Origin: Candidatus Omnitrophota bacterium
Lineage (GTDB): Bacteria > Omnitrophota > Koll11 > Gygaellales > JAHJCI01
Assembly (NCBI GenBank): GCA_030622705.1
Contig: JAUXFU010000038.1
Location: 1-7,414 of the forward strand
Direction of reading: 5' to 3'
DNA: 7,414 nucleotides
Shown: one piece after another, positions 110 through 3,283 of the stretch
How the letters are laid out: every line of letters starts with the position of its first letter
How positions within the stretch are numbered: position 1 is the stretch's first letter
Position numbers and translations under genes: made by a program
Notes under the pieces: model-generated
Databases searched by the model: none
What the model saw: the letters and a program-made list of their open reading frames with translations, nothing else
Told to the model about the DNA's origin: nothing

Positions 110-3100
110 TCAGGATGTTTTATCTTGTTTTCTCTGCCTGACCTCTTCAATAAGCCCTGCCGTAATCTCATTGGGCACCTGCTCGTATTTTTTAAACTCC
201 ATAATCGCGCTTGCGCGGCCGCTACTTAATGAACGAAATATCGTAGCATAACCAAACATTTCAGCCAGAGGGGCTTGTGCAGAAATAATCTTCTGGTCAC
301 TCTTTGTTTCCATCCCCAGAATCTTGCCTCTTTTTGAACAAATATACCCAACAATGGTATTTACATACTTCTCGGGCGTAGTAACCTCAAGCTCCGTATA
401 TGGCTCAAGCAATATAGGCTCTGCCTGCATAAACACCTGTTTAAAGCACCCGATGGCCGCAAGCTTAAAAGCCAATTCGGAAGAATCTACATCGTGGAAT
501 GAACCATCAACCAGAGTTACTCCTATATCTACAACAGGATAACCGGCATAGACTCCCCTATGCATTATCTCAATAATACCCTTCTTTACCGCCGGGATGT
601 ATGATTTAGGAATAGCCCCGCCTTTTATGCTGTCTGTAAATTCAAAATCCTTTCCGCGCTCAAGCGGAAACACCTCAAAAACAACGTGACCATATTGACC
701 CCTGCCTCCTGACTGCTTTACATGTTTATACTCTCCGGTTGCTAATTTCAAAATTGTTTCCTTATAGGCCACCCTTGGCTGCCCTACCGTCACATCCGCA
801 CCAAATTCTACTTTTAACCTGTCTACGATAATTTGCAGGTGCAACTCCCCCATGCCGGAAAGAATATTTTCCCCTGTTTCCTCGTTTCTTTTAACGACGA
901 ATGTAGGATCTTCTTCCGTAAGCCGCCCTAACCCCTTGCCCAATTTATCCTGGTCAGATCTGCTCTTAGGCACAACGCTTAACGAAACCACCGGAACAGA
1001 AAATTGCATCGCCTCAAGCAATATAGGATTTTCGGGATCACATATTGTATCTCCGGTTACCGTGCGAGACAGGCCGATTACAGCCACTATTTCACCGGCG
1101 CAGGCATATCTGTGTATTTCCCTCTGGTTAGCATGCATCTGCAAAATTTTACCGACTCTCTCTTTCTTGTCCTTCCTAACGTTAAGAACATATGAACCTG
1201 ACTGAAGCACTCCGGAATAAACCCTAACATATACAAGCTTGCCCATATGAGGATCGGATTGAATTTTAAACGCAAGCCCGACAAAAGGCTCATCAACATT
1301 CGCCTTTTTTTCAATAGTTTTTTCGGAATCTTGCGGATCCAAACCCTTAACCAGTGACAAATCCAAAGGCGAAGGAAGATATAGCGTTATTGCGTCAAGT
1401 AAATTCTGTATACATTTATTCTTAAAGGCAGAGCCGCATAATATAGGCACTATTGAATTAGCCAGGGTTGCTTTACGAATAGCATTTCTCAACTCATCGA
1501 GCGTTATAGAATCCGGAGACTCTAAGAACTTCTTCATTAACTCTTCGTCCTGCATCGTAACCTTCTCAATCATTATCTGGCGGTATTTTACGGCGGTTTC
1601 TTTGTATTCCTGCGGTATCTCCTCCATGGTAAAATCTTTCCCTGTCTGGTCATCATAGAGATAAGCCTTCATCTGCGTAAGGTCAATGAGGCCTCGGAAA
1701 TCACTCTCCGCACCTACCGGTATCGCCAGAGGAACAACAACCGCTTTAAGTTTCTCTTCGATATCCTTAATCACTGCAAAAAAATCGGCGCCAACGCGAT
1801 CCATCTTATTCACAAATGCTATTTTAGGAACATTGTATTTGTTGGACTGACGCCATACTGTCTCTGACTGGGGCTCCACACCCCCCACGGCACAGAACAC
1901 AGCAACTGCTCCGTCAAGCACGCGCAGGCTTCGTTCAACCTCTACCGTAAAATCAACATGCCCGGGAGTATCAATAATATTTATCCTGTTTCCCTTCCAG
2001 TAGCATGTTGTGGCGGCGGAGGTAATAGTAATACCCCTCTGCTGCTCCTGCGGCATCCAGTCCATCTGGGCTTTGCCGTCATGAACCTCGCCGATTTTAT
2101 GAGATTTCCCCGTATAATATAATATCCTTTCCGTAACAGTAGTCTTACCGGCATCAATATGCGCCATAATTCCGATATTCCTTAACTTCTCTAAATCTAT
2201 CTCAACGGAAATCTTTTGTTCTTTTTCATGCCTTTTTTCTGCCGCTTCTTCCCCGGGCTGCAGCTCTTTCACTGTTTCTGTTTCAATGCCCCCTTGTTTA
2301 AGGCTGCTGTCCTGAGGCTCTTTTTCAGTAGGTTGTTGCTGCGCGCAAACCGCGTCTGGCTCCTCGGCCTTTACGGACAATTCACCCGCGCCGGCAGGCG
2401 CTGCTGCCTCTTCAACTTTTGCTACTTTAGCCTCAACAACTCTCTCTTCAACAACCCCTGCATCCTCGGCTTCTTCGCATGGCAGCTCTTCAACACTCTG
2501 CGCTTTGCCCGCCGGCTCCATTTCTTCCCCGCCGGGCTGATTCGTAACCGGCTTTTCCAACGCCTGCTGAATAGAGATTCCCTTTAATTGACTTCTTTCA
2601 TTCAGGAGCCTGTCTACCTTCTCGCCCTTTGCTTCCAGCTCCTTCTCTAATGCGGAATACTCCTCCATTAACTTATTAAAATCATTCTTAGACACCCACT
2701 CGCTGGCTTCCTGCTGCTTTGTCAAGTCGGTAATAGTTTTATGCTGCTGCCTGTTTTCTTTGATCTGCCTTTCGATTTGATGTTTTGTCCGCTTATTCTC
2801 TTCCGAGAGCCTTTCATTCTCTTGACCCACAGACTTAAATCTTTCTTCTGCCTCTCTAAGCCTTACGTTTAACTTCACATTTTTTGAAAACTCTTCTGTC
2901 AAGTCCTTTTCTTTCTTTAGAAAGGCACTCTTTAATTCTGCTTTTTCCTTCTGAGCTTTTTCTAACTCAGCCTGCTGATTGCCATGCCAATCCCTTAATT
3001 TAGAGGCCTCTTGTTGTGCCTGAGATACGCTCTTGTTTAATATCCCTGACTCCCTCTGCATATTGAGATACTCTGCTTTTACTTTTGCAAGCTCTGTCTT

Positions 3101-3283
3101 CAAAACACCCAATTCCTGCGTAAGGCTTAACTTCTCTTTGTTATAAACCTCTTGGGCCTGGCTTATGGCCTGAGCAGCCTTTTGCGTTTTATCCGGTTTG
3201 GGCTCAGGCTCACCTGAAGAAAACAAAATATATATAGCCCAGATAATTACCCCTGAAACCAGTATTGTAAATGCCAAAACCAT
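110..3283 (-). CDS. Membrane-anchored coiled-coil protein fused to complete elongation factor G
   Basis: One open frame of 1057 codons. Residues 2-21 form a hydrophobic transmembrane segment (VLAFTILVSGVIIWAIYILF). Residues about 33-232 are Lys/Glu/Gln-rich coiled coil. Residues 235-362 are an acidic Ala/Pro/Glu/Val linker without predicted fold. Residues 363-1057 (about 695, the normal family length) are EF-G, the GTPase that drives tRNA-mRNA translocation. Seen motifs are P-loop AHIDAGKT 374-381, G2 RGITIT 416-421, DTPGH 438-442, NKMD 492-495 and G5 CGSAFKNK. Domain III has GMGELHLQI, and domain IV has GGRGQYGHVVF and HDVDSSE with the conserved tip histidine H930. Domain V ends with PLAEMFGYAT. 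All five domains look intact, so GTPase and ribosome binding should be retained. The start at 3283 has AGGAGG 4 nt upstream; a longer frame to 3418 overlaps the nuclease gene and lacks such a site. Cytoplasmic EF-G implies N-out/C-in topology. No ribosomal operon neighbours are present. A one-base error at 2222-2226 could mimic the fusion (see findings). Confidence 0.88.
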   Translation of the reverse strand: MVLAFTILVSGVIIWAIYILFSSGEPEPKPDKTQKAAQAISQAQEVYNKEKLSLTQELGVLKTELAKVKAEYLNMQRESGILNKSVSQAQQEASKLRDWHGNQQAELEKAQKEKAELKSAFLKKEKDLTEEFSKNVKLNVRLREAEERFKSVGQENERLSEENKRTKHQIERQIKENRQQHKTITDLTKQQEASEWVSKNDFNKLMEEYSALEKELEAKGEKVDRLLNERSQLKGISIQQALEKPVTNQPGGEEMEPAGKAQSVEELPCEEAEDAGVVEERVVEAKVAKVEEAAAPAGAGELSVKAEEPDAVCAQQQPTEKEPQDSSLKQGGIETETVKELQPGEEAAEKRHEKEQKISVEIDLEKLRNIGIMAHIDAGKTTVTERILYYTGKSHKIGEVHDGKAQMDWMPQEQQRGITITSAATTCYWKGNRINIIDTPGHVDFTVEVERSLRVLDGAVAVFCAVGGVEPQSETVWRQSNKYNVPKIAFVNKMDRVGADFFAVIKDIEEKLKAVVVPLAIPVGAESDFRGLIDLTQMKAYLYDDQTGKDFTMEEIPQEYKETAVKYRQIMIEKVTMQDEELMKKFLESPDSITLDELRNAIRKATLANSIVPILCGSAFKNKCIQNLLDAITLYLPSPLDLSLVKGLDPQDSEKTIEKKANVDEPFVGLAFKIQSDPHMGKLVYVRVYSGVLQSGSYVLNVRKDKKERVGKILQMHANQREIHRYACAGEIVAVIGLSRTVTGDTICDPENPILLEAMQFSVPVVSLSVVPKSRSDQDKLGKGLGRLTEEDPTFVVKRNEETGENILSGMGELHLQIIVDRLKVEFGADVTVGQPRVAYKETILKLATGEYKHVKQSGGRGQYGHVVFEVFPLERGKDFEFTDSIKGGAIPKSYIPAVKKGIIEIMHRGVYAGYPVVDIGVTLVDGSFHDVDSSELAFKLAAIGCFKQVFMQAEPILLEPYTELEVTTPEKYVNTIVGYICSKRGKILGMETKSDQKIISAQAPLAEMFGYATIFRSLSSGRASAIMEFKKYEQVPNEITAGLIEEVRQRKQDKTS

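What the first reader, a model, noticed from the sequence alone, without database searches (positions are those of the whole stretch)
110..3283. Elongation factor G tethered to the membrane through a long coiled coil
A complete EF-G with all GTPase and domain III-V motifs is continuous, with no stop, with a transmembrane segment, about 200 residues of coiled coil and a 128-residue acidic linker. Canonical EF-G starts about ten residues before RNIGI and is soluble; I know of no described membrane-anchored form. The layout resembles ZipA (membrane helix, charged region, flexible linker, globular domain). It also recalls FtsY, where an acidic membrane-binding region precedes a GTPase acting on ribosomes. 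A continuous 200-residue coiled coil would span roughly 30 nm, longer than a ribosome. The fusion could concentrate translocation at the inner membrane, serve co-translational insertion, or act as a specialised second EF-G.
Basis: partly seen in the sequence, partly recalled or inferred. Interest (0 to 1): 0.85.

Follow-up and report, generated by a model that had tools for sequence, protein, structure and literature searches.

The report
EF-G fused to membrane-anchored coiled coil
Many bacteria of the ultra-small phylum Omnitrophota carry, besides the normal ribosome motor protein EF-G, a second and apparently intact copy predicted to be tied to the cell membrane by a long rod-like leash; this arrangement arose at least twice and I found no earlier description of it.

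Summary
ORF 110-3283(-) encodes 1057 aa: a membrane helix, a predicted 158 + 43 residue helical rod with a conserved break (SEWVSK), an acidic disordered linker and a complete EF-G. It is not an artefact: an independent contig encodes a 91%-identical full-length copy, and at least 63 of 384 genomes of the Omnitrophota phylum carry the same in-frame fusion. In all 13 fused genomes whose str locus I laid out, a normal soluble EF-G sits with rpsL, rpsG and tuf, so the tethered one is an extra paralogue. Its EF-G domain keeps 90% of 216 near-invariant positions and diverges about as slowly as the str EF-G.

A second set of Omnitrophota (7 genomes) made the same architecture independently, from a duplicated str EF-G and a dissimilar membrane coil. 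Tethered EF-Gs co-occur with a divergent EFG II-like paralogue (72 of 80 genomes against 12 of 62), with exceptions.

I infer a membrane-localised accessory translocase. Membrane location and activity are untested.

The parts
110..3283 (-). Membrane-tethered EF-G, 1057 aa, single open frame including the stop codon
3288..3293 (-). AGGAGG ribosome-binding site 4 nt before the ATG
   Evidence: read directly
3221..3280 (-). Predicted membrane helix, residues 2-21
2705..3178 (-). Long coiled-coil helix, residues 36-193
2876..2914 (-). Conserved coil patch, residues 124-136 (KEKDLTEEFSKNV); K124 and F132 invariant in 22 aligned N-terminal parts
2690..2704 (-). Helix break in the conserved SEWVSK motif, residues 194-198; W and K of the motif are invariant in 15 aligned stand-alone relatives
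2561..2689 (-). Second coil helix, residues 199-241
2210..2560 (-). Unstructured acidic linker, residues 242-358
113..2209 (-). Complete EF-G domains I-V, residues 359-1057, GTPase and domain IV tip motifs intact
3351..6302 (-). Upstream co-directional gene with a weak AddB-like N-terminus and a PD-(D/E)XK nuclease domain; not shown to belong to the system
1..87 (-). Start of a co-directional downstream frame (MPLSELDKLRKIL...), runs off the window; identity unknown
   Evidence: read directly

Best explanation
The protein is an accessory EF-G paralogue anchored N-terminus-out, C-terminus-in in the inner membrane. A helical rod of about 30 nm (about 24 nm, a conserved hinge, about 6.5 nm) and a flexible acidic linker hold an active EF-G in the layer of cytoplasm next to the membrane. 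There it performs ordinary GTP-driven translocation on ribosomes near the membrane, for example those translating exported proteins, while the str-operon EF-G serves the rest of the cell. The EFG II-like paralogue is probably part of the same specialised translation branch. Shown by computation: the architecture, its conservation, the intact EF-G, the separate str EF-G in relatives, two independent origins, and co-occurrence with the EFG II-like gene. Inferred: membrane insertion and topology, translocase activity, which ribosomes are served, and any partnership with the EFG II-like protein.
For: The EF-G domain keeps a mean of 90% of 216 positions that are at least 97% conserved in str EF-Gs (soluble A paralogue 92%, divergent D 57.5%), and its divergence between genomes is 0.92 times that of the str EF-G. 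dN/dS is 0.03-0.08 in four pairs, three of them near saturation at synonymous sites. A rpsL-rpsG-fusA-tuf locus exists in 13 of 13 fused genomes laid out. The same layout arose twice from different EF-Gs: holding both sets in one clade is rejected, p-AU 2.2e-6 on a 44-row subset. The 22 N-termini begin with a segment of mean hydropathy 2.2-2.9, and K/R outnumber D/E in the 25 residues after it in 15 of 22. A cyclophilin gene (PF00160 in the four checked) with an export-like N-terminus (by eye) follows directly in one lineage of each set. Tethered EF-G and the EFG II-like gene change together.
Against: No protein-level or localisation data. In the window itself the 25 residues after the membrane helix hold 3 K/R and 4 D/E; K/R do not outnumber D/E in 7 of 22. 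The start codons of the homologues were picked by me for the most hydrophobic start, so the absence of K/R before the helix is partly by construction. F1 diverges more than its sister A in the seven genomes that have both (0.33 against 0.24). Several lineages have the tether without EF-G, so the EF-G domain is dispensable. The cyclophilin neighbour is lineage-limited; in the window only the first 29 codons of the downstream gene are visible. 8 of 80 tethered-EF-G genomes lack the EFG II-like gene, and a similar protein occurs in 11 of 19 sampled phylum genomes without any tethered EF-G.
Confidence: 0.5

Rival explanations
1. The EF-G domain acts as a ribosome-binding tether or sensor, holding or storing ribosomes at the membrane, rather than as a working translocase.
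For: The membrane-coil part persists without EF-G in 12 related genomes at one locus, so EF-G looks like an added module. Free cells of one Omnitrophota species have a low ribosome count (PMC10066038, passages read).
Against: GTPase and domain IV tip residues are retained and the domain evolves about as slowly as the str EF-G; a mere tether should relax them.
Confidence: 0.15
2. A membrane-stored reserve: EF-G is released by cleavage in the disordered linker under some condition.
For: The linker is long, unstructured in the model and poorly conserved in sequence, and a soluble sister paralogue A exists.
Against: No conserved cleavage motif is visible by eye in the linker alignment. The same rod plus linker evolved twice, which suggests that reach matters.
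Confidence: 0.1
3. The hydrophobic N-terminus is not an anchor; the coil builds a cytoplasmic filament or oligomer that displays EF-G.
For: Strong heptad periodicity; membrane insertion was never measured.
Against: 22 of 22 F1 N-terminal parts, and the six F2 proteins measured, hold a strongly hydrophobic 19-residue segment ahead of the coil (mean hydropathy 2.2-3.0).
Confidence: 0.08
4. Assembly or annotation artefact joining two genes.
For: Nearly all sources are metagenome assemblies.
Against: 63 of 63 long frames in independent genomes and one 91%-identical independent contig are fused.
Confidence: 0.01

Closest known systems
Canonical str-operon EF-G (fusA, EFG I subfamily)
   Same: All domains and motifs; TIGR00484 at 1022.6 bits.
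   Different: About 358 extra N-terminal residues with membrane helix, coil and linker; not in the str operon; a separate clade.
Duplicate EFG I proteins such as Pseudomonas aeruginosa EF-G1A/EF-G1B (PMC3832671, abstract read)
   Same: A second EFG I copy outside the str operon with a division of labour.
   Different: The abstract mentions no membrane or coil part.
Other EF-G subfamilies: spdEFG1/spdEFG2, gcEFG2, EFGII, Tet, LepA, TypA (PMC4342817, passages read)
   Same: Members of the same GTPase family, some subfunctionalised for translocation or recycling.
   Different: The words 'membrane' and 'transmembrane' occur 0 times in that catalogue's main text. The sequence here is nearer to bacterial EF-G than to mitochondrial EF-G (826 against 566 bits).
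Engineered L9-EF-G chimera in PDB (4wpo and others)
   Same: A protein fused to the N-terminus of EF-G; deposited as a chimera of ribosomal protein L9 and EF-G.
   Different: Artificial, not membrane-bound. That it binds ribosomes is recalled, not read.
ZipA and FtsY
   Same: Membrane attachment, charged linker, globular cytoplasmic domain.
   Different: Not compared by any search; no ZipA or FtsY family appeared in the Pfam or NCBIfam scans. Analogy only.

Membership tests
EF-G (TIGR00484, EFG I) | Score above the curated cut-off over the full model | tested here: met
   1022.6 bits against 659.4, profile 3-688 of 691
EF-G (TIGR00484, EFG I) | GTPase motifs and domain IV tip intact | tested here: met
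   AHIDAGKTT, RGITI, DTPGH, NKMD, GGRGQYGH and HDVDSSE present, most of these columns invariant in 21 fused proteins; which residues matter is recalled
EF-G (TIGR00484, EFG I) | Encoded in the str operon beside rpsL, rpsG, tuf | tested here: not met
   In relatives the str operon holds a different, soluble EF-G; the window locus has an AddB-like neighbour
EF-G (TIGR00484, EFG I) | Ribosome-dependent GTPase and translocation activity | not testable with these tools
   needs biochemistry
Single-pass inner-membrane protein, N-out C-in | Hydrophobic helix plus charge asymmetry | tested here: inconclusive
   Hydropathy 2.2-2.9 in 22 of 22; K/R exceed D/E after the helix in 15 of 22, not in the window; start codons were chosen for hydrophobicity; topology not measured
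Omnitrophota TM-coil family defined here by the WVxKxEYxxL motif | N-terminal membrane helix, long coil, motif at the helix break | tested here: met
   0 of 50 betaproteobacterial genomes match the profile
spdEFG1/spdEFG2 | Membership in those clades | not tested
   no reference sequences of these clades were put in the trees
EFG II (for paralogue D) | Relaxed RGITI in G2 and deletions in the G' subdomain | tested here: met
   L147 and L149 D proteins read NSINLSL in place of RGITI; D matches to the EF-G profile skip about positions 163-213; features taken from passages of PMC3150367; no EFG II reference clade was in the trees

The most novel reading that the evidence does not exclude
Omnitrophota run a second, membrane-localised elongation branch: a coil-tethered EF-G working with an EFG II-like factor, evolved at least twice, so that ribosomes at the membrane are served by their own translocase. 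In cells of about 200 nm such a leash could reach most of the cytoplasm.
Probability: 0.3. Interest if true: 0.92.

Novelty: new variant of a known kind. Interest (0 to 1): 0.82.

Why it matters
Translation elongation factors are taken to be freely diffusing. A conserved EF-G fixed to the membrane, evolved at least twice in one phylum of nanobacteria, would mean that elongation can be spatially zoned in bacteria. It would make testable whether membrane-proximal ribosomes need or prefer their own translocase. It also defines an unnamed membrane-coil family as a building block of Omnitrophota and links it to an EF-G subfamily of unclear role (EFG II).

Tried and rejected
Artefact reading: rejected. 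Fused EF-G as the only EF-G of the cell: four fused genomes (G267, G280, G317, G373) showed no second EF-G at E <= 1e-180, but they also lack rpsG, as does G001, so the str operon is probably missing from those assemblies and nothing follows. Homology of the two tether families: profile comparison gave only generic coil matches of 34 and 41 columns at 3% and 24% identity, despite nominal probabilities of 97 and 94%; I do not accept it, but an ancient common origin is not excluded. Function from gene neighbourhood: neighbours differ between lineages (pheT-rarA, AddB-like, an RND-pump-like gene, mocA-xdhC); only a cyclophilin recurs, in one lineage of each set. A TM-coil protein with MshEN and PilZ domains (L226) and two others (L225, L227) scored against the tether profile but lack the WVxK motif; not counted as family. 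Pfam and NCBIfam gave no above-cut-off family for the tethers scanned, only weak generic coil hits. Paper searches for a described membrane-bound EF-G: 'Omnitrophota' with 'elongation factor G' returned 0 papers; broader searches matched up to 731 papers each, of which I saw only the best 1-20 listed, none describing one by title or start of abstract. Only open-licence PMC papers are searched.
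Full report
What is there. The frame 110-3283 on the minus strand is open from an ATG with AGGAGG four bases upstream to its stop. The product of 1057 residues has a complete EF-G from about residue 359 (TIGR00484 1022.6 bits, Pfam EF-G domains in order), preceded by a hydrophobic helix, a long heptad-periodic region and an acidic linker. 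AlphaFold2 on 21 fused homologues gives helix 2-21, helix 36-193, a break at 194-198, helix 199-241, no structure at 242-358, and EF-G (mean pLDDT 65, shallow alignment). At 0.15 nm per residue the two coil helices measure about 24 and 6.5 nm. The break coincides with the best conserved motif of the N-terminal part, SEWV(P/S)K; K124, F132 and S194 are the invariant columns of 22 aligned N-terminal parts.

Who has it. The best genome relatives are Omnitrophota and a few records labelled otherwise that group with them in the trees. A profile of the N-terminal part matched 156 of 384 genomes of the phylum at E <= 1e-6 and 0 of 50 betaproteobacterial genomes. One search listed 150 matches, not all. 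Of these, 63, in 63 genomes, lie in open frames of at least 900 residues, and all 63 contain EF-G (51, 12). So 63 of 384 is a lower bound; fusions cut by contig ends come on top. A protein search with residues 1-345, scoring only the 7994 candidates that share most words, found besides the window protein five proteins, all 1000-1086 residues long and all with EF-G domains; the nearest, P0002, is 91% identical over the full length. So the fusion is real and maintained. For a pair of relatives not saturated at synonymous sites, dN/dS is 0.16 in the N-terminal part and 0.046 in EF-G; [quoted passage not shown]

It is an extra EF-G. In 15 of 15 other EF-G loci laid out, 13 of them from genomes with the fusion, the order is rpsL-rpsG-fusA-tuf with a soluble EF-G of 692-709 residues (flanking genes tagged by recalled motifs). 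Of the 51 fused genomes, 47 show at least one further EF-G at E <= 1e-180; the other four lack rpsG as well, so their str operon is probably not in the assembly. In the trees the fused EF-Gs (F1) group with a soluble paralogue (A) at 99-100% support, apart from the str EF-G. In those quick trees A falls inside F1, with the F1 of L018 outside at starred support (95-98), so A could be a fused copy that lost its tether. F1 alone as one clade is nevertheless compatible with the data (p-AU 0.58, nine F1 rows in a 44-row subset), and A is a clade with 98% support there. In L018 (G015) F1 and A lie about 2.9 kb apart on the same strand, which looks like a tandem duplication. The genome of L123, the nearest held genome relative of the window by EF-G (74% identity), carries F1, A, the str EF-G and the divergent D.

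It looks catalytically intact. Of 216 positions at least 97% conserved in 49 betaproteobacterial and 17 Omnitrophota str EF-Gs, 21 F1 proteins keep 84-93% (mean 90%), 13 A proteins a mean of 92%, and six D proteins a mean of 57.5%. Across 91 pairs of 14 genomes, mean F1 divergence is 0.92 times that of the str EF-G. In seven genomes with both, F1 diverges more than A (0.33 against 0.24), which tempers the claim of equal constraint (all).

The tether also exists alone. Besides fused frames, one search listed 81 frames under 420 residues. I fetched 40 regions (39 useful; not all of the 81). Some are fusions cut by contig ends (L193, L202, L205, L208 and others), and these I do not count. Twelve related genomes have the membrane-coil protein without EF-G at one locus: pheT lies upstream in 11 of 12, a rarA-like gene in between in 7 (plus pieces of it in two), a UvrD-type helicase gene downstream in 12, and a cyclophilin directly downstream in 11. 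The fused relatives L003, L004, L005, L007, L011 and L014 carry F1 just after the same rarA-like gene near pheT, and L005, L006 and L010 have the cyclophilin next to the fusion. By the str EF-G tree, 11 of these EF-G-less genomes nest among fused ones (the twelfth, G300, falls with them in the tree), so most simply the EF-G domain was lost there while the tether stayed. Six other genomes (G142, G250, G365, G064, G253, G104) have stand-alone tethers elsewhere. More distant stand-alone proteins of about 210-250 residues keep the motif at the end of the coil; its W and K are invariant in 15 aligned members, while three weaker matches among the 38 looked at lack it. AlphaFold2 of one member shows the same membrane helix, long helix 43-183, break and short helix (mean pLDDT 87). 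The tether therefore seems to have a function of its own that does not need EF-G. That the stand-alone form is the older state is inference.

It happened twice. A 1125-residue frame in G209 led to a second set (F2): G209, G331, G289, G239, G237, G183 and G160 each encode hydrophobic N-terminus, coil, acidic linker and EF-G in one frame of 1029-1125 residues. The EF-Gs of the six put in the tree form a 100% clade inside the str EF-G radiation of their own lineage. Forcing F1 and F2 into one clade costs 386 log-likelihood units (p-AU 2.2e-6, 15 rows of a 44-row subset). Their tethers show no credible homology to those of F1. F2-type tethers without EF-G occur in relatives, in several cases in the same gene order mocA - tether - cyclophilin - xdhC as the fused G237. 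Of nine such tether loci, the cyclophilin directly follows in five (G390, G156, G371, G134, G188) and not in three (G256, G264, G243); G374's tether runs off its contig, so its lack of EF-G rests on the EF-G search alone.

A partner? Genomes with a tethered EF-G nearly always carry D, an EF-G paralogue of about 650 residues. D has a relaxed switch motif and a short G' region, features that PMC3150367 (passages read) gives for EFG II. Counts: 72 of 80 with a tethered EF-G, against 12 of 62 with a tether but no tethered EF-G found (totals). Left out as too incomplete or cut: G365, G392, G256, G371, G335, G353; also left out are the seven genomes without a complete or contig-edge fused frame (G019, G021, G022, G024, G025, G026, G028), at least three of which carry D. 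Of the eight tethered genomes scored without D (G008, G123, G166, G184, G185, G204, G230, G348), G185 and G348 have another divergent EF-G that I did not count. Relatedness inflates the contrast. On an 87-tip str EF-G tree a dependent model beats an independent one (likelihood ratio 28.7, p 9e-6). Eight phylogenetically independent pairs go the same way in 5.8 on average and the other way in none (median sign-test p 0.03, range 0.016-0.125); with the roles swapped, 5.2 of 11 (p 0.06). By parsimony four branches change both traits, out of 9 changes of one and 11 of the other. Against a strict link: the eight above, four EF-G-less genomes and eight that keep D, and a D-like protein in 11 of 19 sampled phylum genomes with no tethered EF-G. 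The 87-tip tree contains none of the eight exceptions, because no full str sequence was in hand for them, so its p-value is flattering. Incomplete genomes may mimic joint absence.

How it probably works. The simplest reading is an active EF-G held within reach of membrane-proximal ribosomes. With the linker at typical coil dimensions the reach is about 40 nm (my arithmetic). Most Omnitrophota cells are about 0.2 um (PMC10066038, abstract and passages read), so 40 nm is a large share of the cytoplasm and the leash need not confine EF-G narrowly. The recurrent cyclophilin with an export-like N-terminus (by eye) hints at work on exported proteins; this is inference. Rivals are given in their own section.

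Novelty. A catalogue of translational GTPases (PMC4342817; term search of the main text, passages shown) contains neither 'membrane' nor 'transmembrane', nor does PMC3150367. Searches of the open-licence library, as far as their listings show, returned no description of a membrane-bound EF-G. Papers outside that library were not searched.

Noticed in passing
G331, G289, G239, G237, G183, G209, G160 (L282-L286, L293, L350): A second, independently evolved set of membrane-coil-linker-EF-G proteins whose EF-G derives from the local str EF-G (tree made for six of the seven).
   Followed up: yes
L189-L192, L194-L201, L206, L207, L209-L215, L218-L223: The membrane-coil part exists as a stand-alone protein in many genomes of the phylum, with a W and K conserved in a WVxKxEYxxL motif near the coil's end; no Pfam or NCBIfam family covers the members scanned.
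   Followed up: yes
L147-L149 (and, without the YchF-like gene, L150): An EFG II-like paralogue sits before a YchF-C-terminal-like gene, purH, a Mur-ligase-domain gene, mnmE and folE (Pfam run on L149), and co-occurs with tethered EF-G.
   Followed up: partly
L005, L006, L010, L189-L192, L194-L200, L285, L287, L289, L292, L294, L295: A cyclophilin-type peptidyl-prolyl isomerase gene with an export-like start directly follows the tether gene in one lineage of each of the two sets.
   Followed up: partly
L226:6449-8605 (G373): A 719-residue protein with hydrophobic N-terminus, long coil, MshEN and PilZ domains; resembles the tether in composition but lacks its motif.
   Followed up: partly
L018 (G015), 7953-16023: Fused EF-G and its soluble sister paralogue lie about 2.9 kb apart on the same strand, suggesting a tandem duplication.
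   Followed up: partly
G267 contig C1 (1,275,236 bases): A nearly genome-sized contig; in this genome no rpsG and no second canonical EF-G were found, probably a gap rather than real absence.
   Followed up: partly
window 6592-7014 and L012:11552-11974: A YjbQ/UPF0047 gene lies near the fused EF-G in the window (upstream) and two genes downstream of it in L012 (Pfam UPF0047 in both); possibly chance.
   Followed up: partly
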